Positions 8,558-41,496 of a stretch of 43,973 nt of DNA are shown here, one piece after another. This stretch comes from Janthinobacterium sp. Its GTDB lineage: Bacteria; Pseudomonadota; Gammaproteobacteria; Burkholderiales; Burkholderiaceae_D. The stretch lies in assembly GCA_025356595.1 (NCBI GenBank), contig JANXSQ010000306.1:1-43973 (forward strand), written 5' to 3'. The notes beneath the pieces are model-generated. The model did not search any database. It was not told the origin of the DNA and worked only from the letters and a program-made list of their open reading frames with translations. The position numbers and the translations under genes are program-made. How positions within the stretch are numbered: the first letter of the stretch is position 1; each line of letters opens with the position of its first letter.

Positions 8558-9001
8558 TTAGTGGTGCAGTTGCGCAGCGGCGGATGCCTGACTGGTTTGC
8601 TCTGGACGGAAGGCCTTTTCGGTCGCCGCCGTATCGTAATAAGCTTCAAACCGGGACACTTTGCCGTCGCGTAAGGTGAACACATGCACCCAGTCGCTAT
8701 CGTAACGACGGCCGGTCGGCTTGGCCAGCCAGGATGCGAATCCTGTCACCACCACCTTGTCGCCATCCGCAATGAACTCTGCGGGTTCGAAGCGGTCAGC
8801 GTGGACGGCTTCGTCAAGCTTGGCGAAAAACTGCGCTATCCCCGTCTTGCCGTGAAAAGCGCCTGAGAAGGGGACGAACGCCAATTCCGGGCCGATCCAT
8901 TCGGCGTCGTCGTGATAGAGGTCCAGCAACTTGCGAATATCCCCGCTCTGGAATCGCCGATATCCCTCCATCACCGCTTGCTTGTTCTCCTGTATGCCCA
9001 T
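8558..9001 (-). CDS. Nuclear transport factor 2 (SnoaL-like) family protein
   Basis: A single-domain NTF2-like protein of 147 residues. MGIQENKQAVMEGYRRFQSGDIRKLLDLYHDDAEWIGP followed by GAFHGKTGIAQFF and FTLRDGKVSRFEAYYDT matches the SnoaL-like cone fold found in polyketide cyclases, ketosteroid isomerases and many stress-related orphans. The catalytic role is unknown. It begins with ATG at 9001, preceded by AGGAGG. It lies just inside the tRNA-Phe-flanked region, so it may be island cargo. Confidence 0.85.
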   Translation of the reverse strand: MGIQENKQAVMEGYRRFQSGDIRKLLDLYHDDAEWIGPELAFVPFSGAFHGKTGIAQFFAKLDEAVHADRFEPAEFIADGDKVVVTGFASWLAKPTGRRYDSDWVHVFTLRDGKVSRFEAYYDTAATEKAFRPEQTSQASAAAQLHH

Positions 9002-9131
9002 GACATACCTCCTGTTCTGTCGGCAGTCCGATGGCAGTCGCGGACGGTCGTGCCGCAGATGGCCGATGTATGAAGCCTAGTACCGCAGGCGGGGAAGTCA
9101 AGGTGGCATGCATCGATTCAGCAGCTGCGCC

Positions 9132-9265
9132 GGGAGCGTCGAGGCTCGCTACGAGGATGAAACTGTCTGGCTGACGCGAGGCTAATAATCGAGCTGTTCG
9201 CGGTGGCTGCGCACACGGTCAGCGGGCACTCGAACATGTTGCTGAACAACGCAGGCAAAAGAGGG
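9132..9265 (+). pseudogene. Remnant of RhuM-family gene (tentative)
   Basis: Frame 1 reads GSVEARYEDETVWLT (9132-9176). A shift of one base then gives RLIIELFAVAAHTVSGHSNM. Together these resemble the N-terminus of the virulence RhuM family, where an E-x-E-T-V-W-L-T segment precedes Q-x-x-M-A-E-L-F and a T-V-S-x-H helix. No start, no continuous frame and no C-terminal domain remain. The match is from memory of the family pattern and is tentative. Confidence 0.35.
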
Positions 9266-9290
9266 GGCAAACTGCAAGTGCAACACTGGG

Positions 9291-9512
9291 TTAATGAGCA
9301 GTGTTCGTCGGGTGTTGCAGCAATGCTATGTGTTGAGTACAAACGACCAGCGGCGATTCAAATCCAACCGTGGCCCTTGGACGCGTATCTAGCGACAGCG
9401 CAATGGCATCCAACTCGTCCTGGAAGTAAATCGATAGGTCTGAGCTTTTGGGCATGTACTGGCGCAACAGGCCATCGGTGTTGTCATTGATTCCGACGCT
9501 TCCGTTTGCTTG
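9291..9512 (-). mobile_element. IS30-family transposase 3' fragment
   Basis: In one minus-strand frame the segment reads NDNTDGLLRQYMPKSSDLS followed by LDAIALSLDTRPRATVGF and stops at 9291. This is the well-conserved C-terminal end of IS30-family transposases (NENTNGLLRQY-P-K-x-T-D then LNxRPRKTLGF). The rest of the transposase is missing; it abuts the Mrr remnant, suggesting insertion into or recombination within that gene followed by decay. Terminal inverted repeats could not be identified. Confidence 0.7.
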
Positions 9513-9865
9513 GCTGACCGAGATGCATCGCGAAATTCGACGAATCCAGGGAATCGGTCGAGATATGTGACGTCGACCCGTGTCGGGTTTTCGCTGAGAA
9601 CCTGCTTGCCGCGCGTGGTAATCCGCAGCGCGCCGCGACGAGGCGATTCCAGCAGACCGGCTTTTTTGAGGTATGAGTTCGCCCAGCAGATTCAATCATT
9701 GAAGACGGCCTGCGGGCCGCTCGCAAGCAGTTGGTTGCGCTAATCTTGGTCTAGCTTGAACTCCTCAGCCAATACATCAACGGCTTCCCGGGTGGTGTGA
9801 TCGATATCGTCCGACGCGAAGCGGAGCAAAGGCAGCATGAGCGTTTGGTAGTCTGGGATTGGCAT
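9513..9865 (-). pseudogene. mrr: Mrr restriction endonuclease, N-terminal remnant with two stops
   Basis: From the ATG at 9865 the frame reads MPIPDYQTLMLPLLRFASDD, the typical start of Mrr-type type IV restriction enzymes. It continues through a TAG at 9740-9742 (RNQLLASGPQAVF next), a TGA ten or so codons later, then WANSYLKKAGLLESPRRGAL and TYLDRFPGFVEFRD in the same frame. This covers the winged-helix Mrr_N domain. The catalytic PD-(D/E)xK domain is gone; the frame runs into IS30 debris. It is therefore a dead modified-DNA restriction gene. Confidence 0.75.
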
Positions 9866-9989
9866 CGATTGGCTAGGATCCGCTAGATGGCTGGGAAATG
9901 TGTATGCCGGCAATACACCATCGTCTAGGCCGCTCGGGTACCGTGTATTGCTGTTGGAATTGCTGCCGCAAGAGGCACTCAGCACAAGG

Positions 9990-10018
9990 TGGACAAACTC
10001 TGCTAATCTTGCTATTCA
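9990..10018 (+). promoter_or_regulatory. Putative sigma-70 promoter of the parA-HEPN pair
   Basis: TGGACA at 9990-9995 and TATTCA at 10013-10018 with a 17-bp spacer, about 35 bp upstream of the ParA-like start. Composition here is more AT-rich than the host genome. Confidence 0.4.
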
Positions 10019-10051
10019 CTTTTCAATCAATCACCTGCGATGAGGCTGCAC

Positions 10052-11092
10052 ATGGCGAAGATCGTCTGTTTATTCAACCACAAGGGCGGCGTGAGCAAAA
10101 CGACGACCGCGTTCAATTTAGGATGGATGCTGGCGCTAAAGGGCGCGCGGGTTCTCCTTGCGGATTTTGACCCGCAGTGTAATCTCACTGGAATGGTTCT
10201 TGGCTACAAGGGTATAGCTGATTTGGAACAGACCTACACTTCGCTTCCGGCTAACAACGTGATGGACGGCTTAGCGCCTGCATTCGAGTCGCAACCGCGA
10301 CAAATCGTGGGCGCCGAATGTGTCAATGTGCCTGGAAACGAAAAATTATTCTTGCTACCGGGTCATATTGGTCTTGCGGAGTACGAAACGACGCTTGGCA
10401 TTGCTCAAGAGCTAAGTGGTTCTCTATTGGCACTTCGCAACTTGCCGGGTTCATTGCGCTTCCTAATTGACGCGACAGCTGAAAAATACGAGATTGACTT
10501 CGTTATTGTTGATATGAGTCCGAGTCTAGGCCCAATCAATCAAAATCTGTTGATGACATGCGACCATTTTATCGTCCCACTTCACCCAGACTATTTCTCG
10601 TCGATGGCGCTTAGTTCGCTTGCTAAGTCGTTGCCGCGCTGGGTCGCTTGGGCACGGACTGCGTATGAGGTCGAGGTCTTGCGAAAGGCTGATTACCCAT
10701 TCCCAAAAATGAATGCGACATTTATTGGATCAGTAATTCAGAAGTACCGTCCCCGCAATGGACAGCCAAGCGCCGCATTTGATCGTTGGATCGATAAACT
10801 CAAGGAAGGCCTCAGAAATGAACTAATACCTAGTCTTGAAAAGGCTGGATTACTGAATGTGGTGGAGTTTAAGGCTAGAATTGGCGCAGAACCGTCGGAG
10901 CCCATACTCTCGGTTGCGGACTTCAACAGCCTGATCGCGTTGTCGCAGGAATTCCAAGTTCCCGTATACGCGTTGACGTCGGAACTAATTCAGCAGACTG
11001 GTAGAGTTTGGGATACGACCAAGGCGAGTATGGCAGTTTTCGAGGCAGAATTTAGTGGCTGTGCTGATAAACTGATTGCTCTCACAAAATAG
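10052..11092 (+). CDS. ParA-family ATPase (AAA_31)
   Basis: A protein of 346 residues with a deviant Walker A motif KGGVSKTTT (K11-T19), a switch segment DFDPQCNLTG (from about residue 39) and a Walker B-like IDFVIVDMSPSLG. Such MinD/ParA ATPases bind ATP as dimers and position DNA or protein cargo. The ATG at 10052 has GAGG six bases upstream and is preferred to the ATG at 10040. The protein is longer than plasmid ParA, with an extra C-terminal helical region, and there is no parB gene beside it. Instead a HEPN gene starts 7 bp after its stop, so a non-segregation role is likely (inference). Codon use is less GC-rich than the host. Confidence 0.88.
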   Translation: MAKIVCLFNHKGGVSKTTTAFNLGWMLALKGARVLLADFDPQCNLTGMVLGYKGIADLEQTYTSLPANNVMDGLAPAFESQPRQIVGAECVNVPGNEKLFLLPGHIGLAEYETTLGIAQELSGSLLALRNLPGSLRFLIDATAEKYEIDFVIVDMSPSLGPINQNLLMTCDHFIVPLHPDYFSSMALSSLAKSLPRWVAWARTAYEVEVLRKADYPFPKMNATFIGSVIQKYRPRNGQPSAAFDRWIDKLKEGLRNELIPSLEKAGLLNVVEFKARIGAEPSEPILSVADFNSLIALSQEFQVPVYALTSELIQQTGRVWDTTKASMAVFEAEFSGCADKLIALTK

Positions 11093-11099
11093 TTGACCA

Positions 11100-11726
11100 A
11101 TGACTCCGATTGCACATTTTCAATCGGTGTGGGAGCGCTGTGAGCAAATTGCAGGCATACACACCTATCTATCCGGTCGCCTGACAGTTGCCCTAAGCCC
11201 GGATGAGTTGTTAAGGGCTGAATGGGTTGCGCGCGTTAGTGCTCTCGACCTTTATGTACATGAGTTGGTCGCACAGCAGATGCTGGAAATTTTCGAGGGG
11301 CGCCGTACACCGTCATCTGGATTTCAGCGCTTTACGATACCCAACGATGTGTTGATGCGAATCCGTGCGGCTGAATCGAAGGCGGATGAAAGCTCTGCAT
11401 TCGATTTGGAGGTTCGTAGTAGGCTGGGCTTTGCAACCTATCAAGATCCAGACAAGATCGCTGACGGAGTGCGCCAGTTCTCAGATGTTGAGTTGTGGAA
11501 TGAAATCGCTATTAAGCAGGGGGCGACTAACGCGACCAAGGTCAGCGTAGCTAAGGCTTTGAAGCGCGGACTTTCGTTGATCGTTGAAAGACGGAACAAA
11601 ATTGCACATGAGGGCGACTTGCAGCCAGGCGCTCCCCGCGTTCCGTGGCCCATAAATCGCGCCGATCTGCAAGAGGTCGCTAGGATGGTTTTGCTTATCG
11701 TGATGGCACTCGAACAGATCGCGTGA
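11100..11726 (+). CDS. HEPN-domain protein (RiboL-PSP/MAE_28990-like), putative RNase effector
   Basis: A helical protein of 208 residues with the HEPN signature RNKIAH (R165-x4-H170) inside RRNKIAHEGD near the C-terminus. An SALDLYVHELVAQQML helix lies near residues 47-62. The Rx4-6H motif is the catalytic centre of HEPN ribonucleases in toxin-antitoxin, abortive-infection and CRISPR effectors. The layout, with an N-terminal helix pair and late Rx4H, recalls the RiboL-PSP-HEPN group. It starts 7 bp after the ParA-like gene without a clear ribosome site, so expression is probably coupled. A defence or toxin role is inferred from family and from the neighbouring mrr debris. Confidence 0.78.
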   Translation: MTPIAHFQSVWERCEQIAGIHTYLSGRLTVALSPDELLRAEWVARVSALDLYVHELVAQQMLEIFEGRRTPSSGFQRFTIPNDVLMRIRAAESKADESSAFDLEVRSRLGFATYQDPDKIADGVRQFSDVELWNEIAIKQGATNATKVSVAKALKRGLSLIVERRNKIAHEGDLQPGAPRVPWPINRADLQEVARMVLLIVMALEQIA

Positions 11727-11904
11727 ATCAAGTTAGGCCGTTGAACCGAGTATATCGCCTTGGTGGCCCTTGCGAAAAACCTTCAATTAATGAGGAAAAT
11801 TTCAATTTTGTGAGCGCTGCTCGCGCCGCACACGGAAGTTGATTTGTTGGGTGGAGTTAGGAGCGTACCGGAAATTGACCGGACACGAGGTCTACGGGTT
11901 CCAC

Positions 11905-11943
11905 AAAACAGAACGCCAACCGGCATGGGTTGGCGTTCTGTTT
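11905..11943 (-). terminator. Rho-independent terminator of tRNA-Phe
   Basis: A perfect 13-bp stem, CAGAACGCCAACC (11909-11921) with its complement at 11928-11940 and a six-base loop, extends by A/T pairs and ends in TTTTG on the minus strand, just downstream of the tRNA. Confidence 0.85.
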
Positions 11944-11954
11944 GACACTGTTCT

Positions 11955-12030
11955 TGGTGGCCCGGGGCGGAATCGAACCACCGACACAAGGATTTTCAAT
12001 CCTCTGCTCTACCGACTGAGCTACCAGGCC
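11955..12030 (-). tRNA. tRNA-Phe (GAA)
   Basis: The minus strand gives a complete 76-nt cloverleaf including an encoded CCA. The acceptor GGCCTGG pairs with CCGGGCC (one G-U), the D arm is GCTC...GAGC, the anticodon stem GAGGA/TCCTT carries loop TTGAAAA with anticodon GAA, and the T arm contains GGTTCGATTCC. The sequence of the mature tRNA is identical to the second copy at 19227-19302. Its 3' end faces the remnant island. Confidence 0.97.
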
Positions 12031-19226: not shown

Positions 19227-19302
19227 TGGTGGCCCGGGGCGGAATCGAACCACCGACACAAGGATTTTCAATCCTCTGCTCTACCGACTGAGCTACCAGG
19301 CC
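19227..19302 (-). tRNA. tRNA-Phe (GAA), second copy
   Basis: Identical in the mature 76 nt to the gene at 11955-12030: anticodon GAA in loop TTGAAAA, acceptor stem with one G-U pair, encoded CCA. The duplicate explains how the first copy could tolerate element insertion at its 3' end. Confidence 0.97.
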
Positions 19303-32456: not shown

Positions 32457-33023
32457 TCAGCGCGTGAGAAAGTTCTTCAACAGGGCGTGGCCGTGTTCCG
32501 AGAGGATCGATTCGGGGTGGAACTGCACGCCCTCGATGTCGAACACCCTGTGGCGCACGCCCATGATTTCACCGTCGTCGGTCCACGCCGTCACTTCCAG
32601 GCAGGCCGGCAGGGTGGCCCTGTCGATGGCCAGCGAGTGGTAGCGGATCACCGTGAAGGGGCTGGGCAAGCCCTTGAAGACGCCCACGCCGGTGTGCGCG
32701 ATGGCCGACGTTTTGCCGTGCATGACCTGCTTGGCGCGGATGACGTCGCCGCCGAAGGCCGCGCCTATGGCCTGGTGGCCCAGGCAGACGCCGAGGATGG
32801 GCAGGCGGCCGGCGAAATGATGCAGGATGGGCACCGAGATGCCGGCCTGCGCCGGGGTTTTCGGCCCCGGCGAGATGCAGATGCGGTCCGGGCCCAGGGC
32901 CTCGATCCCGGCCAGCGTGATCTCGTCGTTGCGCACCGTGCGCACCTCCTCGCCCAGTTCGCCGAAGTACTGCACCAGGTTGTAGGTGAAGGAGTCGTAG
33001 TTGTCGATCATTAATGTTGACAT
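32457..33023 (-). CDS. trpG: Anthranilate synthase component II, start replaced by an integrated element
   Basis: A class I glutamine amidotransferase of 188 residues. [10 protein letters not shown] carries the nucleophile cysteine and GVQFHPES the His/Glu pair; it feeds ammonia to TrpE. The protein begins [20 protein letters not shown]. The usual family start is [11 protein letters not shown]; that native start survives at 39954, beyond the integrated element. So the first four codons here (ATG TCA ACA TTA) come from the element and the rest from the chromosome. GAGAAA upstream is a weak ribosome site. Frame is fully restored, so function is likely kept. Confidence 0.95.
32993..33011. repeat. 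Left attachment site core of the element
   Basis: AGTCGTAGTTGTCGATCAT, matched at 39927-39945 by the same sequence with one change (G to T at position 14). On the minus strand it is the trpG codons ATGATCGACAACTACGACT. The copy here continues into genuine trpG; the other continues into the element. Confidence 0.85.
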
Positions 33024-33183
33024 AGCGTTTTTCTCTATATTTTGCTTTGTAATCAAGCACTTATGAGCGACTAGCTTACAAATTTCGTTCAGAATCTAAA
33101 AATTGGGTTTTCATAGGAGAAACACAGCTTGGACAAGTCGTGATAGAGTCATTTTGTCCAAATTTTTGTCCAAGCGAGCAATT
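33012..33183. promoter_or_regulatory. Left end of element: new trpG leader and integrase upstream region
   Basis: On the minus strand TATAGA (complement of 33033-33038) lies close before the new trpG start and may be a -10, though no well-placed -35 is seen. TGTCCAAATTTTTGTCCAAG at 33155-33174 repeats at 39866-39885 with one change. A TTCAGAAT...CATAGGAGAAA...ACAAGTCGT series (33088-33141) also has a counterpart at the right end (39892-39932). These are probable recombinase arm sites. Confidence 0.5.
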
Positions 33184-34608
33184 ATGACCAAGCCGAAATT
33201 GTCCAAGCCAAAAAGCGAGGTTGTCAAATCACTACCTTCAAAAATTCCATATATCTACCCCTACAAGCTCCCCAGTGGAGAGGTTAGGTATCGGGTTCGC
33301 ATTCGTAAAAAAGTCTTTGCTGGCAAGCCTTTAGACACCCCCATAAACGAAGTTTATCACACTATAGAACAGGCCAAAAAGCGACTTTATGATTTAGAAT
33401 TTGGCAATGTTTTGCAAGAACGAGCAGAAATGTCACGGTTGATTTCCTTGGGTAGCTCAATAACAATTTCTGAGCTATTTGATGAATATCACAAGAAAAG
33501 ACTTAAAGATAAAAAAGATACAAAAAATTATAGAAGTAAACTAAATGTTATTGCTCGAACACTCATTGATTCAGAAGACAACAGAATTACAAAAGTAGCT
33601 AATTTCTCTTTTAATTTTAATGCTCATTTAGCGAATGAGCAAATAAAGTTTGGTGATTTTCATGTAAACAATTTTACTCTCTTGTTGCTTAATCGCTATG
33701 TAGAAGCACGATTGCAACAAGTTAAACCTCAAACTATTTCAAATGAAATAGTTTTGATAGGTAAAGTTCTTAAAGATAGTCACAACCTTTTTACACAATT
33801 AAAAAAAATTGAAAATCCACTTGATGGATTTGATTGGAAATCACTAAAACCCATTATTGTTTATCGTGATAAAAAAGTAAGAACAGACTCAAAAAAATTC
33901 ATTGAAAATATATTGCTCAAGAGAAGTAGAACAACAAATTATTATGATATGTTTCAGTTTCTTCACGAAACAGGTTGCAGAATTTCAGAAGCTTTATCTG
34001 TTCAAGTTAAAGATATTGATTTTGACACAAGAACAATTTTTGTAATCACAAAAAAGAACAAGCAACCAAGATATTTAGGTCTTTCACCTGTTCTTTTTCC
34101 AATAATAAAAAAACGGTGTGAAAACAAAACACCCACAGATCGAATTTTTTCTTATACAGTAGATACTTATGAAAGTAAGCTTACTCGTTTAAGACCTCAT
34201 TTTTTAAAAGCAGGTGTTGTTTTTAAATGGCATGATTTGCGACATAACTATATCAGTCGTCATTTGAACTCAAAAAATGTCTTGCAAATTATGCACGAAA
34301 TGGACATTAATGATATGCAATATTTTCAAAGTCAGTATCTTAATGTAATTCAATCGGAACAGGCAGCATTAAAAGTAGCTCAGTCAATCACATTAAACCC
34401 TAATGAGGTCGCTAATGCAGTCGGACACTTTGAGAACTTAAAACAAACCCAAGAATACACACACTACAGCCCAAGCCCTGAATTTTTGCAACCTAAGCAA
34501 ATTGACTTAATGGAGATTTTGAGAAAACAATCTGAACAACTTCAAATGCAACAAAAACAAATAGAAGAGCTAATTAAATTAAATCCAAAAAAAAAGCTAC
34601 ATTATTGA
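33184..34608 (+). CDS. Tyrosine recombinase/integrase
   Basis: A protein of 474 residues. The N-terminal half carries arm- and core-binding regions (LPSKIPYIYPYKLPSGEVRYRV is an AP2-like/arm domain start). The catalytic half shows the arginine in ETGCRISEAL, the lysine hairpin VITKKNKQPR, HDLRH (H-x-x-R), the histidine of NAVGHFENLKQ and the nucleophile tyrosine in YTHYSP. All catalytic positions are present. A coiled, Gln-rich C-terminal tail follows (KQSEQLQMQQKQIEEL). The ATG at 33184 is chosen; an upstream frame from 33103 overlaps end repeats. It should excise and integrate the element at trpG. Confidence 0.93.
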   Translation: MTKPKLSKPKSEVVKSLPSKIPYIYPYKLPSGEVRYRVRIRKKVFAGKPLDTPINEVYHTIEQAKKRLYDLEFGNVLQERAEMSRLISLGSSITISELFDEYHKKRLKDKKDTKNYRSKLNVIARTLIDSEDNRITKVANFSFNFNAHLANEQIKFGDFHVNNFTLLLLNRYVEARLQQVKPQTISNEIVLIGKVLKDSHNLFTQLKKIENPLDGFDWKSLKPIIVYRDKKVRTDSKKFIENILLKRSRTTNYYDMFQFLHETGCRISEALSVQVKDIDFDTRTIFVITKKNKQPRYLGLSPVLFPIIKKRCENKTPTDRIFSYTVDTYESKLTRLRPHFLKAGVVFKWHDLRHNYISRHLNSKNVLQIMHEMDINDMQYFQSQYLNVIQSEQAALKVAQSITLNPNEVANAVGHFENLKQTQEYTHYSPSPEFLQPKQIDLMEILRKQSEQLQMQQKQIEELIKLNPKKKLHY

Positions 34609-34659
34609 GAGAAAATTTCTCCAATCGTTTTATTTGAAACAATAAACTAGGGAAAAACC

Positions 34660-35448
34660 ATGGGAATTTTTGATTTTTTTAAATCATTGGCTAAAAAAGA
34701 ACAACCTGCCAACATAAGCACTACTCCGCCTCGCCACGATAATTTAATTCCAACAATAAAGGCAGAAAAGGAGGTTTTTGAATGCTACGACGAAGTTTTT
34801 AAAGAAATGATCTGCGACATTTCTGGTTTATCAGAAATTGAGACGAAAGAAATTCACTCCATTATAAAAAAATGCGATGGTGGATTCCTAAATATGGGCG
34901 GTTATCAAGCCATTGTATGGAAAAAATATTTCAAAGGCCGAGATTGGAAATGGAATGAATATGAAGAATGGAATAGAAAATTTTTAAAAATTGGAAGATT
35001 TCCTACTAACTTTCCATTGAAAAAAGCATTCATACCAGCAACGACTGAGGACGCACTGAATCAATTGAAAGTCAGTGACCTGAAATCATTATTTGCCGTA
35101 TGCCAATTGACTGTTCCGAGCAAAGCGAAGAAAAAAGAGTTGATTGATAGTCTTAAATCGATCCCCAATATAGACAGTAACTCATTAGTATCATTTAAAA
35201 TTGAAGAGCTAAACGGTCGATTCAACTACGGTCTTTTCTCGCTACTAATGAGGACTATAAATTTTAGAGGGATAAATTTATATGAGTTCAGAAGATCTAA
35301 CAGGGCTGGAATAAAAAAATTCAAAATATTATATGTTTTTGAGGAAGATAAAGAGTTTGTAGAAATGGCATTAAAATTGAAGCCAAATGCGCTGCACCCT
35401 ATTTTTCCCTCTGATATGAGCATAAGGCAACCTATAGTTGAATTCTGA
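34660..35448 (+). CDS. Hypothetical protein with SAP-like motif
   Basis: An AT-rich gene for 262 residues that I do not recognise. Starts MGIFDFFKSLAKKE, an amphipathic helix. Residues about 132-167 (LNQLKVSDLKSLF...KAKKKELIDSL) have the helix-turn-helix shape of SAP domains, which bind DNA. The rest is mixed helices and strands, rich in Lys and Phe, with no signal peptide or membrane helix. It begins 51 bp after the integrase, and 14 bp before the next gene, so the two cargo genes likely form an operon. Function unknown. Confidence 0.75.
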   Translation: MGIFDFFKSLAKKEQPANISTTPPRHDNLIPTIKAEKEVFECYDEVFKEMICDISGLSEIETKEIHSIIKKCDGGFLNMGGYQAIVWKKYFKGRDWKWNEYEEWNRKFLKIGRFPTNFPLKKAFIPATTEDALNQLKVSDLKSLFAVCQLTVPSKAKKKELIDSLKSIPNIDSNSLVSFKIEELNGRFNYGLFSLLMRTINFRGINLYEFRRSNRAGIKKFKILYVFEEDKEFVEMALKLKPNALHPIFPSDMSIRQPIVEF

Positions 35449-35462
35449 AAAGGATAGAGAAA

Positions 35463-35867
35463 ATGATAATAAAAAAATGGTTTAAAAAATTTATAGAAAA
35501 AATATTTTTTAACAGGAAAAAAGCACTTTTATTTTGCACAATAATTTCTGTTTTTTCTTATTTTTTAGAATCATGTCTTAAAATTAATAACCTTTTCTCT
35601 TCGTCTGGAGCAATATTTACAATAGCGGGACTTTTTCTTAATATTAAGCTAACTGCTCATTTTCACCTTAAGCTACCTAATGGCAATGATTTAGGCATTG
35701 ATAGTAAGCATGCCATGATTACAGGCAGGTTTTCCTTTGGAGGTAATGAATCCCAAAGTGAGAAAGAGATTATAGTCAGGGAAGTTGAAAGTGACGAAAT
35801 ATGGGGAGCGACTCTTATGGTAGTTGGAACATTAATTTGGGGATATGGCTCTTACTTAATAATATGA
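35463..35867 (+). CDS. Hypothetical small membrane protein
   Basis: A protein of 134 residues. A basic start (MIIKKWFKKFIEKIFFNRKK) leads into hydrophobic segments at about 21-37 and 46-63; a soluble middle (about 66-112) and a last membrane segment (about 115-133) follow. I do not recognise the family. AGGATAGAGAAA gives a ribosome site. It sits 14 bp after the SAP-like gene and ends before a strong terminator. A paired soluble plus membrane protein can indicate a defence or entry-exclusion unit, but nothing in the sequence proves it. Confidence 0.7.
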   Translation: MIIKKWFKKFIEKIFFNRKKALLFCTIISVFSYFLESCLKINNLFSSSGAIFTIAGLFLNIKLTAHFHLKLPNGNDLGIDSKHAMITGRFSFGGNESQSEKEIIVREVESDEIWGATLMVVGTLIWGYGSYLII

Positions 35868-35881
35868 ATTCCTGTTTAACA

Positions 35882-35910
35882 AAAATGCCAGTCATATAGA
35901 CTGGCATTTT
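35882..35910 (+). terminator. Rho-independent terminator after cargo genes
   Basis: Twelve-base perfect stem AAAATGCCAGTC/GACTGGCATTTT with a five-base loop, followed by ATTTTA. It closes the integrase-cargo unit. Confidence 0.9.
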
Positions 35911-35924
35911 ATTTTACCTCACTA

Positions 35925-35952
35925 TTGACAATTTAAAGATATTCAATAAAGT
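35925..35952 (+). promoter_or_regulatory. Promoter-like sequence upstream of non-coding region
   Basis: Perfect TTGACA at 35925-35930, 16-bp spacer, TAAAGT at 35947-35952 (four of six consensus positions). It sits between the terminator at 35882-35910 and an ORF-free region of about 650 bp. Confidence 0.5.
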
Positions 35953-36379
35953 AAGATAGCAATCCCCCGATTGGCTATTAAATAATATTAAAAATCTTAT
36001 GATTGTCAAGACCTAATAAATATTAAATTGCCTTAGCGAGAGATTGTTATGGCAATTTTTTTATGCGTCGGTTAATTCCCACGATTCGAAATTTTGCTAA
36101 TGCGAATAGTTTGTATGAAGGCAGGTTAAAAATAGTCAGGTAATATCTGATAACTGTAAATCCCCCCAGACAGGTAGCGACACTATTAATATAGTGAAGT
36201 AGGCTAGAATGAGATTTAAACAAAGCCACATTGAGAGTCTAAAGGTCCAACCAAGTTTAAGCTGTGTTATTACGGTGAATGGACTAAACAGAAGTTATTA
36301 ACAATCTTCTGTCCCGATATGTAGTGAAACATTTAGGGAAATGATACCCACTTAAAAATTAAAACATTTTTCGGTAGGG

Positions 36380-36442
36380 AGTCTTTTCCCTTCTTAGTAG
36401 TGACTGAGCAAAGCGAAGGAGCACATAAGAAGGGAAAAGACT
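36380..36442 (+). repeat. Long hairpin, 17-bp perfect stem
   Basis: AGTCTTTTCCCTTCTTA at 36380-36396 and its exact complement at 36426-36442 enclose a 29-nt loop with GAGCAAAGCGAAGGAGC. It is the strongest structure in the putative RNA. Confidence 0.85.
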
Positions 36443-36585
36443 TGTGTTTACTATGATCTAAAGAATGCATGTTAATAGTATATCAGAAGTTATATTAAAT
36501 ATTGAACAAGCAAAGAGTAACTCGTAAGAGATTTACGATAGTAAATAAAAAAGGAAACGGCAAAAATTTACACTGACCAAATACG

Positions 36586-36611
36586 AAAGACACTCATTGA
36601 GTGTCTTTTTT
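36586..36611 (+). terminator. Rho-independent terminator between RNA region and minus-strand genes
   Basis: Ten-base stem AAAGACACTC/GAGTGTCTTT with a three-base loop and T6. It ends the plus-strand transcript and could also stop the convergent small genes. Confidence 0.9.
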
Positions 36612-36639
36612 GTTTTAGAAGACTGAGCGAGTCAGTCAG

Positions 36640-36807
36640 TCATTTTTCACTATCGTGATCTATATTCTTTAAATTTTCTTCTTCAATCTCTTTAAGAATT
36701 TCGTCATAAACAGACTCCCAGTCTTCATATGTGTGCAATTCATTTTTGAGCTCTTTAAATGTTTCTTCACTCACTAACTTTTTAACTTCAAGTATTACAT
36801 TACTCAT
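36640..36807 (-). CDS. Small acidic protein of the element
   Basis: A protein of 55 residues, MSNVILEVKKLVSEETFKELKNEL..., strongly acidic and helical (EILKEIEEENLKN). The ATG at 36807 has GGAG upstream (AGGAGATATAAAA). It follows the RHH-like gene by 25 bp on the same strand. Could be a second component of a regulator or antitoxin pair; no family recognised. Confidence 0.65.
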   Translation of the reverse strand: MSNVILEVKKLVSEETFKELKNELHTYEDWESVYDEILKEIEEENLKNIDHDSEK

Positions 36808-36832
36808 TTTTATATCTCCTTTTAGTTTATTT

Positions 36833-37210
36833 TTATACTTTCCAATCGAACTGATCAATTATTACTTTTTTGTTTTGTGCATTAGCTGAAAAATTTAGCT
36901 CAATGAGATCAATAATTGTAGTTTCAATTTCTTTTTCATATTCAATTGATAATTGAGTAAGTTTTTCATAAACTTCGTTGCCAAGAATTTTTTCTAGCAA
37001 AGCTAATTTTTGTTTTTTTTCTTTTTCAATAAATGTATCTACAGCATTACGAACCACTAAAGACATACTTGATTTACTAGTTTCAATGTGTTCTTTGGTT
37101 AAATATTCGACTTGGTCAAATCTCAAAAAGACAGAAATTTTTAAATGCTCTTTTGTAGATTTGGGTTTTGGTTTTTGATTTTCAACTATTTCTGGTTTTT
37201 GTTTTTTCAT
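36833..37210 (-). CDS. Ribbon-helix-helix-like DNA-binding protein
   Basis: A protein of 125 residues. A Lys/Pro-rich start is followed by KISVFLRFDQVEYLTKEHIETSKSSMSLVVRNAVDTFIEK (about residues 25-65), which has the strand-helix-helix pattern of CopG/ParG-type repressors; a helical tail follows. GGAGAC lies before the ATG at 37210. It diverges from mobC across a repeat-rich spacer and may repress mobilization or act as a partition/antitoxin protein (inference). Confidence 0.68.
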   Translation of the reverse strand: MKKQKPEIVENQKPKPKSTKEHLKISVFLRFDQVEYLTKEHIETSKSSMSLVVRNAVDTFIEKEKKQKLALLEKILGNEVYEKLTQLSIEYEKEIETTIIDLIELNFSANAQNKKVIIDQFDWKV

Positions 37211-37522
37211 AAAAGTCTCCTGGTTTTTCTTATCGTAGCAATCATAAAAAAAAGAACAAGAGTTCAATGATATCGACTTGTCGGAGAAAAGAAGACAATA
37301 ATAGATTTTTTACCTGTCGGATTTTATCCGATATCGAATATTAGCTATTCTATTTACAAAGAAAAATAAAAAGCTATGATTAAAACAAGTGCAAAAAAAG
37401 AGTCAAGCAAGGCTACTATATGACACGGGCTAAAATAATTTTCAATTATGTTTAGCTCTCTCATATAGACTTTTCTGGGGGTTCCCCAGTCCCCTAAAAA
37501 CAATAAAAATAAAGGCAAAAAA
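37211..37522. other. Divergent spacer with candidate oriT
   Basis: About 310 bp without a gene between the RHH-like gene and mobC. It holds TCGGAT/ATCCGA (37317-37331) and, 34 bp before mobC, CTGGGG-GTT-CCCCAG (37475-37489) followed by TCCCCT. A G-rich hairpin immediately upstream of mobC and relaxase genes is the expected place for an origin of transfer. Promoters for both directions must also lie here. Confidence 0.45.
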
Positions 37523-37942
37523 ATGCAGAAAAAAATAAAATCAGGAAGAACAAACGACGAACATATCTACAAAAGAACATACAGCTTGGACATTAAATTA
37601 AGTCCATACGAAAAAGATTTAATCGAAAATAAATATAGTCAAGAAGGTTTTAACTCAATGTCAGCATATGTTAGAAATTGCATTTTTAACGGGACAGAAG
37701 AAAGAATTGACAATTATTTGACTGAAAGATTTAACTTTAAAATATTGCAACAACCATTTTTGACAGAGCTAAATCGAATTGGTAGCAATGCAAATCAGTT
37801 AGCGAAAAAAGTAAATTCTAATAAATTTTTTACTAAAGAAGAAAAAAATACTATCAACAATCAGCTTGAAAATCTGATTGAGGAAATGAAATCTATAAAA
37901 AATTTAATTGAGTCACAGACAAAAAATAATAAAAATATGTGA
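37523..37942 (+). CDS. mobC: MobC-like mobilization accessory protein
   Basis: A protein of 139 residues. YSLDIKLSPYEKDLIENKYSQ is a ribbon-helix-helix start, and FLTELNRIGSNANQLAKKVN (about 86-105) is the hallmark of MobC (PF05713-type) relaxosome proteins, which open oriT DNA for the relaxase. AAAGG precedes the ATG. The stop overlaps a GTG of the relaxase frame, indicating coupled translation. Confidence 0.85.
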   Translation: MQKKIKSGRTNDEHIYKRTYSLDIKLSPYEKDLIENKYSQEGFNSMSAYVRNCIFNGTEERIDNYLTERFNFKILQQPFLTELNRIGSNANQLAKKVNSNKFFTKEEKNTINNQLENLIEEMKSIKNLIESQTKNNKNM

Positions 37943-37950
37943 GAAAAATT

Positions 37951-39504
37951 ATGGCAATAATGAGCTTTAACAAATCTTCAAAATCGATTATGAGTGCGAT
38001 AAATTATTTTGAGTCGGATACTGATCACACGAATACAGTAAGAAAATTTAAGCCAATTGCAATTTTTGGCGATAAAAATAGTATCGAGAAAATAGAAAAT
38101 TTAGCGAGAGAATCTGGCATTGAAAACACCCATTCTTCTTTGGCAATTTCATTTCGTGACAATGAATTTTCTGAATTTAGAAATTCTGACGGTTCTTATA
38201 ATGAAGAAAAATTAGTCGTAGCAATGAAAGAAATCGTAAAAGATTTTAGAGAAACTTGGTTCGCTGGTTTGAAAAACCCAGACAATTTTTCTGACTTTTG
38301 GAACATACATACAGACAAAGGAAATGTAGAATTAAACTGCGCATTTTTAAAAATGGAATTAAGTACAGGAAAGTCATTTAATCCTTTCCCCCCTGGCGAG
38401 CTAAACCAAGATATGCGAGATTGTTATGTTGATTTACTTAATGATAAATTGGGTTTTGATAGAGTGATAAGAAATCCTTTCTCGTTAGCTCATAATGATT
38501 TAGAGTTGAAAGATATACAAAACCCAAGCGAAACAGCCAAACGACAAAAAAACTTTGTTAAACCCAAAAAAGATAAAATACAAAATTTTCTCACTTCTCA
38601 AGTTTTAGATAAGAAAATTAATTCGAGAGAAGAACTAATCAGGGTTTTGCAGAAAAATGGAGAAGTAAAATTTTTAGACAAAGAAAATGAAAAGGACAAA
38701 TATAACTATATCTCATTTATCCCGACTGGCTCAACAAAAGCTATGAAACTTAATGGACCAATGTTTAAAAAAGATGCTAATTTTGACGAGCTAAGAAATG
38801 AACACAGAACTAATCAAGCTATCGAAAAAAACGACTCATTAAAGCAACTATCTAATGAAGAAAAAGAGTCTAAACAAGAGAAGTTAAGCAAGCATATAGA
38901 AATAGAAAAAAGCTGTAATGAGAAGTTAAAAAACTCAGGAATCAAAAAAATTAAGAAGAACAGCAGTAGAAAGTATTTGCCGAAAAGTAAAAAATTAGCT
39001 ACAAAAAAAGTTACTTCCTCAAATGAAAAAGTAACTCAAACTAAGCAGTCAGCAGAGAATAAAAATGATAGTATCAAGACTATTGATAAAGCTAATGATA
39101 TAAAAAAATTGTCTGAAAATAAGTCTATAAAAGAAAACTTGTATAAATCGTCAAATCAAATAAAAATAAAACCTGCTATACAGAATAAAGAAGACAGCCA
39201 AAAAAATAGCACGGCTTCAATATCTTCATTTAGCGCAGTAGCATTTAACTCAAGTTCTGCACTAATCACGGTTCAAATCAATTCAATCTTATTTTCAAAA
39301 CTCAATCTTGAAATGCAAATTGGTCAATTGAGTCATTTCAAAGAAAGTGATATTAAGAAAATTTTTGAACTAAAACAGAAAATTGCAGAACTTCAACAAC
39401 AAATTGAAACATTGAAAGCAAAGCAAGAACAATCAGCAGAGTCTGCATTGATTGCTAATGCTAAAAAGTTCAAAAATAGTGGTGGCTCAAAAATCGGCAT
39501 TTGA
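37951..39504 (+). CDS. Relaxase (mobilization nuclease)
   Basis: A protein of 517 residues from the ATG at 37951; a GTG at 37939 inside the mobC stop is an alternative. The N-terminal relaxase domain (about 1-200) has a candidate catalytic tyrosine in INYFESDTDH, THSSLAISFRD and the metal-histidine region WNIHTDKGNVELNCAF, then TGKSFNPFPPGELNQDMRD. The C-terminal half is Lys/Ser-rich and low complexity, ending in a coiled coil (KQKIAELQQQIETLKAKQEQ). The histidine triad is less canonical than in MOBP/MOBQ, so the MOB class is unclear. It nicks oriT and leads the strand during transfer. Confidence 0.85.
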   Translation: MAIMSFNKSSKSIMSAINYFESDTDHTNTVRKFKPIAIFGDKNSIEKIENLARESGIENTHSSLAISFRDNEFSEFRNSDGSYNEEKLVVAMKEIVKDFRETWFAGLKNPDNFSDFWNIHTDKGNVELNCAFLKMELSTGKSFNPFPPGELNQDMRDCYVDLLNDKLGFDRVIRNPFSLAHNDLELKDIQNPSETAKRQKNFVKPKKDKIQNFLTSQVLDKKINSREELIRVLQKNGEVKFLDKENEKDKYNYISFIPTGSTKAMKLNGPMFKKDANFDELRNEHRTNQAIEKNDSLKQLSNEEKESKQEKLSKHIEIEKSCNEKLKNSGIKKIKKNSSRKYLPKSKKLATKKVTSSNEKVTQTKQSAENKNDSIKTIDKANDIKKLSENKSIKENLYKSSNQIKIKPAIQNKEDSQKNSTASISSFSAVAFNSSSALITVQINSILFSKLNLEMQIGQLSHFKESDIKKIFELKQKIAELQQQIETLKAKQEQSAESALIANAKKFKNSGGSKIGI

Positions 39505-39550
39505 CAAAGCAAAAAAACGATATAAACGATTTATACCGTTTCACACACAA

Positions 39551-39649
39551 AAAACGGTCTAGAACGACCGTAGAGCGATTTTTGGCATTGAGTGCTACAT
39601 GCCACTAGATTGCTAAAAAAGTAGCTCTACGGTCGTTCTAGACCGTTTT
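39551..39649. terminator. 26-bp inverted repeat with nested palindromes, likely bidirectional terminator
   Basis: The arms at 39551-39576 and 39624-39649 are perfect complements. Each arm holds its own hairpin ACGGTC-N6-GACCGT. On the plus strand the first is followed by AGAGCGATTTTT; on the minus strand the second is followed by AGAGCTACTTTTTT. So either strand has a hairpin plus T-run: one ends the relaxase transcript, the other should stop transcripts entering from trpE. Confidence 0.7.
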
Positions 39650-39823
39650 GGTGTTGCTTTTGCTGTTGCTTTTAAACCAGCTCGTCTGGTTCTTCTAATT
39701 CAGGGGTTGCTGTTGCTGTTGCTGTTGATTTTGTTGTACCGAATTCTGCACAAACTGCCTCGTGTTAACACCTTAAAAAACCAACTTAGGACCGTGGGAC
39801 ATACTTTCCCACCACCCTGGTGA

Positions 39824-39852
39824 GTTGTTATTTTGCTATGCAAAATAACAAC
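39824..39852. repeat. 13-bp perfect hairpin
   Basis: GTTGTTATTTTGC (39824-39836) and GCAAAATAACAAC (39840-39852) with a 3-nt loop; close to the right end arm repeats, possibly a second block to trpE readthrough or a protein site. Confidence 0.8.
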
Positions 39853-39865
39853 TTTGAGGAATTTC

Positions 39866-39885
39866 TGTCCAAATTTCTGTCCAAG
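39866..39885. repeat. Right-end arm repeat
   Basis: TGTCCAAATTTCTGTCCAAG, same direction as the copy at 33155-33174 (one change). The unit TGTCCAA occurs twice within each. Likely recombinase arm sites. Confidence 0.65.
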
Positions 39886-39906
39886 TGATTTTTCAGAATT
39901 CTTTTC

Positions 39907-39954
39907 TCATAGGGGAAAATACAACAAGTCGTAGTTGTCTATCATCAGCAGCAT
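39907..39954 (-). pseudogene. trpG: Truncated native trpG start (15 codons)
   Basis: The sequence MLLMIDNYDLLYFPL then stop. The first nine residues are the normal trpG N-terminus; the rest is element sequence. The ATG at 39954 lies one base after the trpE stop (TGAGATG) with GGGGAG upstream, showing that trpE and trpG were translationally coupled before insertion. Confidence 0.85.
39927..39945. repeat. Right attachment site core of the element
   Basis: AGTCGTAGTTGTCTATCAT, direct repeat of 32993-33011 with one mismatch. The mismatch suggests the crossover lies in or next to ATGAT (minus strand), with the sequence left of it here from the element. Confidence 0.85.
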
Positions 39955-39955
39955 C

Positions 39956-41452
39956 TCAGAACTCCCCATCCAGGCCGTCTTGCACTTGTTCGGCGGCGCG
40001 CAGCACGGCGCGCGCCTTGTTTTCCGTTTCCTGCCATTCCATTTCCGGGATCGAGTCGGCGACGATGCCGGCCGCCGCCTGCACGTACAGCATGCCGTCC
40101 TTGATGACGCCGGTGCGGATGGCGATGGCGACGTCCATCTCGCCGCCGAATGACAGGTAGCCGCAGGCGCCGCCGTAGATGCCGCGCTTGCTCAGTTCCA
40201 GTTCGTCGATGACCTCCATGGCGCGCACTTTCGGCGCGCCCGTCAGGGTGCCGGCCGGGAAGGTGGCGCGCAGCACGTCGAGGTTGGACAGGCCCTGTTT
40301 CAGCGTGCCCTCGACGTTCGAGACGATGTGCTGGACGTGCGAGTATTTTTCGATCACCAGGCGCTCGGTGACCTTGACGCTGCCGATCTCGGAGATGCGT
40401 CCCAGGTCGTTGCGGGCCAGGTCGATGAGCATCACGTGTTCGGCGATTTCCTTCGGGTCGGCCAGCAGTTCCTTCGACAGTTCGGCGTCGCGCTCGGGCG
40501 TGGCGCCGCGCGGGCGGGTGCCGGCGATCGGGCGCAGGGTGACTTTCTTGCCGCCGTCGGCGGCCGTCTCGTTGCGCACCAGGATCTCCGGCGAGGCGCC
40601 GATGATCTGCATGTCGCCGAAATTGTAGAAGTACATATACGGCGAGGGGTTCAGCGAGCGCAGCGCGCGGTACAGGGTGAGCGGCGAATCGACGTAGGGC
40701 TTGCGCAGGCGCTGGCCGATCTGCACCTGCATCAGGTCGCCGGCCATCACGTATTCGTGGGCCTTGGCGACGGCCTTCAGGTAGTCTTCCTTGCTGAAGT
40801 CGCGCAGGGTCTCGGTGCGCACCGAGCTCGAGGTGACGGGCGCGTCGACGCCGCGGCGCAGCATCACGCGCAAGTCCTTGAGGCGCTGGCGCGCCTTCGA
40901 GAAGGATTCCGGCACGCCGGTGTCGGCGTAGACGATCAGGTACAGTTTGCCCGACAGATTGTCGATGACGGCCAGTTCCTCGGTCACCATCAGCTGGATG
41001 TCGGGCAGGCCCAGGTCGTCCGGCGGGGTCGTCGCGGCCAGGGTCTTTTCGATGTGGCGCACGGTGTCGTAGCCGAAGTAACCGGCCAGGCCGCCGCAGA
41101 AGCGCGGCATGCCGGGACGCAGCGCCACCTTGAAGCGGGCCTGGTATTGTTCGATGAAGTCGAGCGGATTGCCGTCGTGGCGTTCGACGACGACGCCGTC
41201 CTTGACGATCTCGGTGCGCGTGCCGAAGTTGCGCAGCACCGTGGTGGCGGGCAGGCCGATGAAGGAATAGCGCCCGAAGCGCTCGCCGCCGACCACCGAT
41301 TCGAGCAGGAAGGTGTTCTTGCCGCCGTTTTGCGACTGCGCCAGTTTCAGGTACAGGGTGAGCGGGGTTTCCAGGTCGGCAAAGGCTTCGGAGATCAGCG
41401 GGATGCGGTTGTAGCCTTCGTTGGCCAGCGATTTGAATTCGAGTTCGGTCAT
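39956..41452 (-). CDS. trpE: Anthranilate synthase component I
   Basis: A protein of 498 residues. The tryptophan feedback site LLESVVGGERFGRYSF is near residue 50, the chorismate-binding core carries PIAGTRPRGATPERD, LIDLARNDLGRISEIGSV and FPAGTLTGAPKVRAMEVIDE. It makes anthranilate from chorismate with ammonia from TrpG. The ATG at 41452 has GGAGAG upstream; an ATG at 41464 is weaker. The C-terminus is intact and ends just outside the element. A leader peptide and attenuator precede it. Confidence 0.96.
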   Translation of the reverse strand: MTELEFKSLANEGYNRIPLISEAFADLETPLTLYLKLAQSQNGGKNTFLLESVVGGERFGRYSFIGLPATTVLRNFGTRTEIVKDGVVVERHDGNPLDFIEQYQARFKVALRPGMPRFCGGLAGYFGYDTVRHIEKTLAATTPPDDLGLPDIQLMVTEELAVIDNLSGKLYLIVYADTGVPESFSKARQRLKDLRVMLRRGVDAPVTSSSVRTETLRDFSKEDYLKAVAKAHEYVMAGDLMQVQIGQRLRKPYVDSPLTLYRALRSLNPSPYMYFYNFGDMQIIGASPEILVRNETAADGGKKVTLRPIAGTRPRGATPERDAELSKELLADPKEIAEHVMLIDLARNDLGRISEIGSVKVTERLVIEKYSHVQHIVSNVEGTLKQGLSNLDVLRATFPAGTLTGAPKVRAMEVIDELELSKRGIYGGACGYLSFGGEMDVAIAIRTGVIKDGMLYVQAAAGIVADSIPEMEWQETENKARAVLRAAEQVQDGLDGEF

Positions 41453-41496
41453 GTTTCTCTCCATGCCGCCGGACTTGTGCCGGACGGTGGGTTTGC

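What the first reader, a model, noticed from the sequence alone, without database searches (positions are those of the whole stretch)
32993..39945. Mobilizable element that integrates into the first codons of trpG
Seen: a strongly AT-rich block with tyrosine recombinase, MobC-like protein and relaxase lies exactly between trpE and trpG, flanked by AGTCGTAGTTGTC(G/T)ATCAT direct repeats that fall inside the trpG coding start. Known: integrases usually choose tRNA genes or 3' gene ends; 5'-end targeting (for example SXT in prfC) is rarer. Inference: the element uses a conserved trpG segment (codons for MIDNYDS) as its attachment site, a target I have not seen described. This is the best candidate for a new system in the window.
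Basis: partly seen in the sequence, partly recalled or inferred. Interest (0 to 1): 0.9.

Follow-up and report, generated by a model that had tools for sequence, protein, structure and literature searches.

The report
Mobilizable island inside the trpG start
A small, probably mobilizable DNA island has inserted itself into the first codons of a tryptophan-synthesis gene and put back a start for that gene; prophages with quite different integrases use the same spot, so the gene start looks like a shared docking site.

Summary
A 6.9-kb, roughly 30% G+C block in a 67% G+C trp operon is bounded by 19-bp direct repeats (one mismatch), both copies of the trpG start; relatives have the uninterrupted site. 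The crossover lies in ATGAT, codons 4-5 of trpG. The native start stays at trpE as a 15-codon stub; the element supplies ATG-TCA-ACA-TTA and a leader, giving [11 protein letters not shown] for [10 protein letters not shown]. It encodes a tyrosine recombinase without close relatives, arm-type sites clustered near both ends, a NikA/MobC-like protein and a weakly supported MOBP-like relaxase: most likely an integrative and mobilizable element. Mobility and trpG expression are untested.

The target is not unique to it. Four other genomes of the family carry 17-40 kb inserts (two are prophages) at the same codons, and 19 of 31 IMG/VR records with trpG tested have an integrase at the opposite end. 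Those integrases show no pairwise similarity to the window's, though both match one broad integrase profile. Gene-start insertion with frame repair is known (dusA islands, SXT/prfC); pyocins lie between trpE and trpG in P. aeruginosa. I found no paper naming the trpG 5' end as an attachment site. New variant of a known kind.

The parts
32457..33023 (-). trpG with element-supplied start: ATG TCA ACA TTA, then native ATG ATC GAC... ([11 protein letters not shown])
   Evidence: TIGR00566 270 bits, the only one of 4 matches in the genome over the family cut-off
32993..33011 (.). att core copy on the trpG side, AGTCGTAGTTGTCGATCAT; crossover within ATGAT = 33007-33011
   Evidence: same as the empty sites of relatives
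33012..33060 (-). element end that supplies leader, putative ribosome-binding site (AGAGAAA) and start codon for trpG
   Evidence: sequence; function inferred
33129..33206 (.). cluster of TTGTCCAA/TTGGACAA arm-type sites (33129, 33154, 33166, 33199)
33184..34608 (+). int, tyrosine recombinase, 474 aa
   Evidence: PF00589, phrog_1; no close relative found
34660..35448 (+). ORF of 262 aa, HeH/LEM-like stretch below cut-off; possible cargo, one distant relative in Cupriavidus (29% identity, 86% covered)
35463..35867 (+). ORF of 134 aa, hydrophobic by eye, no family in Pfam
36020..36580 (.). ORF-poor stretch that folds better than shuffles (z -4.97 on +, -2.90 on -); possible structured RNA or origin
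   Evidence: no Rfam match at the gathering score
36833..37210 (-). 125-aa protein, ribbon-helix-helix-like by eye; no significant family
37523..37942 (+). NikA/MobC-like relaxosome accessory protein, 139 aa
37951..39504 (+). MOBP-like relaxase, 517 aa; H120, E127, N129 fit the HEN type
   Evidence: weak similarity
39551..39649 (.). 33-nt inverted repeat with 33-nt spacer, holding terminator-like stems on both strands; could stop trpE transcripts entering the element
   Evidence: effect inferred
39866..39884 (.). two TGTCCAA arm-type sites 12 bp apart
39907..39954 (-). stub from the native trpG start: MLLMIDNYDLLYFPL, stop
39927..39945 (.). att core copy on the trpE side, AGTCGTAGTTGTCTATCAT; its T (A in the trpG sense) is element-derived, 29 of 29 genus loci having C in the trpG sense
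39956..41464 (-). trpE, open frame, host
   Evidence: named by sequence and position

Best explanation
A 6.9-kb integrative and mobilizable element. Its tyrosine recombinase binds TTGTCCAA-type arm sites near both ends and a core of about 19 bp, and recombines the circular element into codons 4-10 of trpG, exchanging strands in ATGAT. Integration leaves the native trpG start behind trpE and gives trpG a start codon, three further new codons and a leader from the element, so anthranilate synthase component II is kept. The relaxase and MobC-like protein would nick an oriT and let the element leave through another element's conjugation apparatus. Shown from sequence: repeats, empty site, genes, arm-site clustering, restored frame. 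Inferred: excision, arm binding, transfer, and expression of trpG from an element promoter.
For: Direct repeats and composition; exact empty sites; recombinase, MobC-like protein and relaxase-like protein; 6 of the 7 TGTCCAA/TTGGACA sites of the element lie within 200 bp of an end (500 first-order Markov simulations: mean 0.036, maximum 1); open trpG frame with new start; the same crossover codons used by four inserts in related genomes and by proviruses.
Against: The relaxase call rests on weak similarity (E 0.0017 to a family model, far below its cut-off; 21-26% identity to listed plasmid relaxases); N129 is shared by only one of three aligned plasmid relaxases; its structure model was too poor to use (mean pLDDT 51.5). 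No oriT, excisionase or promoter for trpG was identified; promoter-like sites are not above chance (25 found, 27.6 expected). The element is known from one contig of one draft genome, so movement is not shown.
Confidence: 0.86

Rival explanations
1. An integrated element that no longer moves: the att repeats and genes are relics of one past insertion.
For: One copy in its genome, no close relative found of the recombinase or, in viral contigs, of the relaxase; no excisionase recognised.
Against: Recombinase, MobC-like and relaxase-like frames are all open, and the repeats are nearly perfect.
Confidence: 0.3
2. Not a conjugation-mobilized element but a phage satellite or plain genomic island whose 'mob' genes serve another purpose such as replication.
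For: The relaxase similarity is weak, and no oriT was recognised.
Against: A NikA/MobC-like gene directly followed by a relaxase-like gene, the order on plasmid pVAE259; H and E invariant with three plasmid relaxases; no phage-structure family among six proteins.
Confidence: 0.11
3. Assembly chimera: foreign DNA joined to the trp operon by error.
For: Draft genome with 419 contigs and 2.45% contamination.
Against: Two breakpoints exactly at a 19-bp attachment core, where other elements also insert.
Confidence: 0.03

Closest known systems
dusA-specific mobilizable islands (IMEVchUSA3; PMC8409611, passages read)
   Same: Mobilizable element inserts in the 5' end of a conserved gene and restores the reading frame with a new N-terminus (and, there, a measured promoter).
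   Different: Target dusA, SGI1-like, mobilized by IncC plasmids; here trpG, a recombinase without close relatives and a MOBP-like relaxase.
SXT ICE in prfC (as cited in PMC8409611)
   Same: 5'-end target; new promoter and N-terminus supplied.
   Different: A full conjugative element; target prfC.
Prophages at trpG found here (G217, G054, G817/L137 and other IMG/VR records)
   Same: Same crossover codons; trpG-start remnant left behind and gene restored by the element end (seen in those whose ends were readable).
   Different: Integrase without pairwise similarity to the window's, placed at the trpE end; phage structural genes (G217, G054); trpG leader resembling the host's (ATCAANNGGTTA type), whereas the window element brings an AT-rich leader of its own.
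R/F pyocin cluster between trpE and trpG of P. aeruginosa (PMC10598620, PMC7344871, PMC11577772, PMC13075995; passages read)
   Same: Phage-derived DNA in the same gap, called a hotspot for pyocin integration in PMC13075995.
   Different: Integrase absent (PMC13075995); no att repeat described in the passages read.

Membership tests
Integrative and mobilizable element (IME) | Own integrase, direct repeats at both ends and an empty site in relatives | tested here: met
Integrative and mobilizable element (IME) | Own relaxase and/or oriT | tested here: inconclusive
   Relaxase by weak similarity; no oriT located
Integrative and mobilizable element (IME) | No conjugation apparatus of its own | tested here: met
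   Six ORFs scanned in Pfam, no such family; smaller ORFs were not scanned, but 6.9 kb leaves no room for one
Integrative and mobilizable element (IME) | Excision and transfer with a helper | not testable with these tools
   needs cultures
MOBP relaxase, HEN (MbeA-like) branch | H...E.N in place of the three-histidine motif, N-terminal tyrosine (motif recalled) | tested here: inconclusive
   Alignment A1 of 4: H120 and E127 in 4 of 4; N129 in the window and L321 only, H in the other two; Y19 matched in L319, F in L321, L320 not covering. L320 and L321 plasmids are typed MOBP, L319's is typed non-mobilizable
5'-end-targeting elements that restore the gene | Element supplies a start codon and an open frame | tested here: met
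5'-end-targeting elements that restore the gene | Element supplies a promoter | tested here: inconclusive
   No promoter-like site above chance
trpG-targeting prophage integrase lineage | Integrase specifically related to that of G217/G054 | tested here: not met
   No blastp hit at E<=1; no phmmer hit at E<=1e-3 to candidate ORFs from 20 proviral ends. Both do match the broad profile phrog_1

The most novel reading that the evidence does not exclude
The start of trpG is a general, convergently used attachment site in Proteobacteria: at least two and perhaps three separate integrase lineages (the prophage clade of G217/G054, the divergent integrase of record G791, the window's) recombine in the same ATGATNGA codons, each element repairing trpG with its own start. 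The Pseudomonas tailocins between trpE and trpG would be domesticated descendants of such prophages.
Probability: 0.3. Interest if true: 0.65.

Novelty: new variant of a known kind. Interest (0 to 1): 0.48.

Why it matters
It adds a biosynthetic gene start to the integration targets and suggests that separate integrase lineages converge on the same codons, which makes target choice testable: strongly conserved codons (MIDNYD) right at a start, where the element can restore the gene. Insertion separates trpE from trpGDC, so expression of the two anthranilate synthase subunits may come to depend on the element. The site also offers a possible, so far untested, origin for the trpE-trpG tailocin locus.

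Tried and rejected
Recombinase relatives: pattern scans of genome contigs (36 stretches, none related) and viral contigs (19 stretches, none related), which find close relatives only; plasmids and phages by tblastn (5 and 7 records, about 22-32% identity over part of the protein); 392 family genomes (114 match at 1e-3, the best after its own at 25% identity, E 6.8e-12); 398 phylum genomes (none at 1e-12 besides its own). A genome-contig scan for the element's trpE-side junction gave 0; that collection may leave out the window's own genome. Relaxase and 262-aa ORF in viral contigs: none.

Split trpE/trpG junctions that are not such elements: G072 and G315 (6.6-6.7 kb, G+C-rich, transporter-like by eye). 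G292, G302, G020, G097, G010, G051, G121 and G315 show one trpG-start copy only and no integrase by phmmer; the coarser test had also missed G274's second copy. G186 has a natural spacer of about 650 bp. The other split genomes were judged by gap length or contig ends, without fetching DNA.

Tailocin origin: the far ends (2 kb) of 12 integrase-less proviral records showed no trpG-start remnant (best 5 mismatches of 17; reversed control best 4) and no trpE, so the test says nothing either way. The AlphaFold model of the relaxase was discarded. Rfam gave two sub-threshold matches (E 0.021 and 0.81), taken as chance.
Full report
What is in the window. The trp operon runs on the minus strand: trpE (41464-39956), then trpG, followed by what read by eye as trpD and trpC. 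No tool names the host; from content I take it to be an Oxalobacteraceae-like betaproteobacterium (recalled, untested), and the genomes below carry handles only. Between trpE and trpG the G+C content drops from about 0.67 to 0.28-0.33. The borders carry AGTCGTAGTTGTCGATCAT (32993-33011) and AGTCGTAGTTGTCTATCAT (39927-39945), the only two matches in the window against none in 100 shuffles. They are the trpG start read backwards: ATGAT(C/A)GACAACTACGACT, M-I-D-N-Y-D-S.

Empty site. All 40 genomes of the genus searched match trpG. With a 161-bp junction query from the relative G295, 379 of 392 family genomes match. Within the genus 35 of 40 have a listed row over essentially the whole query, and G230 and G338 match at 1.5e-58 and 1.7e-56 with the row not shown; the exceptions are the window's own genome (split, 4.5e-51) and G072 and G315, with a 6.6-6.7 kb gap. 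In G295 the DNA reads GGGGAGTTCTGAG-ATGCTGCTC-ATGATCGACAACTACGACTCC; the window has the left part followed by the core at trpE and the right part preceded by the core at trpG. In the trpG sense the trpE-side copy has ATA where 29 of 29 fetched genus loci have ATC, so that base is element-derived and the crossover lies in ATGAT.

Effect on trpG. The native start now reads MLLMIDNYDLLYFPL-stop. The gene itself begins ATG TCA ACA TTA ATG ATC GAC, in frame, preceded by AGAGAAAAACGCT. It is the only one of four trpG/pabA-type matches in the genome over the family cut-off, so its loss would probably matter. No promoter-like site stands out from chance (25 found, 27.6 expected), whereas terminator-like sites do (9 found, 3.2 expected), among them a pair inside the inverted repeat at 39551-39649. 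Whether trpGDC is transcribed from the element is open.

The element. Six ORFs were scanned. int is a tyrosine recombinase with no close relative in the collections searched. The 139-aa protein is NikA/MobC-like. The 517-aa protein matches plasmid relaxases weakly. In an alignment with three of them H120 and E127 are invariant, while N129 is shared with one and is H in the other two; two of the three plasmids are typed MOBP, one non-mobilizable. TGTCCAA/TTGGACA occurs seven times in the element, six of them within 200 bp of an end; 500 simulated sequences gave at most one in those ends. This is the layout expected of recombinase arm sites (recalled). The other ORFs have no known function; the 262-aa one has a 29%-identical relative in Cupriavidus.

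Other elements at the same codons. Positions of matches were examined in 61 genomes with weak or split junction matches (29, 32), and DNA of 13 of them was fetched (9, 4). Four carry an insert bounded by a second copy of the trpG start: G217 (about 40 kb), G054 (about 40 kb), G274 (about 29 kb), G200 (about 17 kb). G217 encodes a tail sheath and a tape measure protein, G054 a portal protein and a terminase, so both are prophages, P2-like by recall. G217, G054 and G274 have an integrase at the trpE end (84% identity between the first two, 41-42% to the third), with no blastp similarity to the window's; none was found in G200. So at least 5 of 392 family genomes, the window's included, carry an insert there. 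This is a lower bound: not every row was listed, 13 genomes had no match, and a split junction of high identity can still score well, as the window's own does.

Beyond the family. I tested 33 records: 31 of those 46, plus L136 and L137. 21 of 33 carry a PF00589 integrase; among the 31 with trpG it is 19, each at the end opposite trpG. Of 20 of these 21 integrase ends fetched, 13 stop at the integrase start codon; of the 7 that run further, 5 show a trpG-start remnant (G787, G788, G794, G796, G817) and 2 do not within 700 bp (G797, G801). In a tree of 50 integrases the 22 trpG-side rows (19 of the 20 ends, G809 not entering, plus G054, G217 and G274) cluster: 2 changes, shuffled mean 16.6, 0 of 500 as low. 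The 28 other rows are family members of unknown target, and G791 sits on a very long branch. The window's recombinase matched none of the candidates at 1e-3. Against full independence: it and the G217 integrase both match the broad profile phrog_1, so they share the superfamily. Prophage leaders resemble host trpG leaders (ATCAANNGGTTA type), the window's does not, which suggests an independent solution to the same problem.

Literature. Passages read: pyocins lie between trpE and trpG in P. aeruginosa (PMC11577772, PMC7344871, PMC10598620, PMC13075995), and a predicted P. aeruginosa prophage is reported to include trpG (PMC12456005). [quoted passage not shown]). In Xanthomonas arboricola trpG borders a variable region, without mention of an attachment site in the gene (PMC4686621). 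Passages of PMC8319346, PMC5704250, PMC6722718, PMC6053426, PMC11112994, PMC10413270 and PMC8910486 describe no trpG attachment site. From searches I saw listings and these passages only; most listed papers were not opened, and the library is open-access. So 'not in print' is a statement about that sample.

Verdict. The element is best filed as an IME-like element with an unfamiliar recombinase, at a site that prophages also use. Its class of mechanism is known; the target, and the apparent convergence of separate integrase lineages on it, are the new part.

Noticed in passing
36020-36580: ORF-poor stretch with a perfect 17-bp inverted repeat (36380-36396/36426-36442) folds far better than shuffles (z -4.97 on the + strand), with no Rfam match at the gathering score; possibly a structured RNA or a replication/transfer origin.
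   Followed up: partly
9000-12000: Second, milder G+C drop (to about 0.50) with a ParA-like ATPase ORF by eye (10040-11092) and a following ORF, ending near tRNA-Phe (11955-12030); a possible further island.
   Followed up: no
11955-12030 and 19227-19302: Two tRNA-Phe genes (gaa) about 7 kb apart on the same strand.
   Followed up: no
L048, L054 (G315, G072): Two genus members have a 6.6-6.7 kb G+C-rich segment between trpE and trpG; in G315 no second trpG-start copy. trpG there has a leader of the AGGTTAG type.
   Followed up: partly
L170 (G200): 17-kb insert at the trpG start without a recognisable integrase; its trpE-side end looks transposase-like by eye.
   Followed up: partly
IMG/VR records G789, G790, G792, G793, G798, G803, G804, G807, G810-G813: Twelve integrase-less records of 15-32 kb that carry trpG near one end; some may be Pseudomonas tailocins (recalled, untested).
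   Followed up: partly
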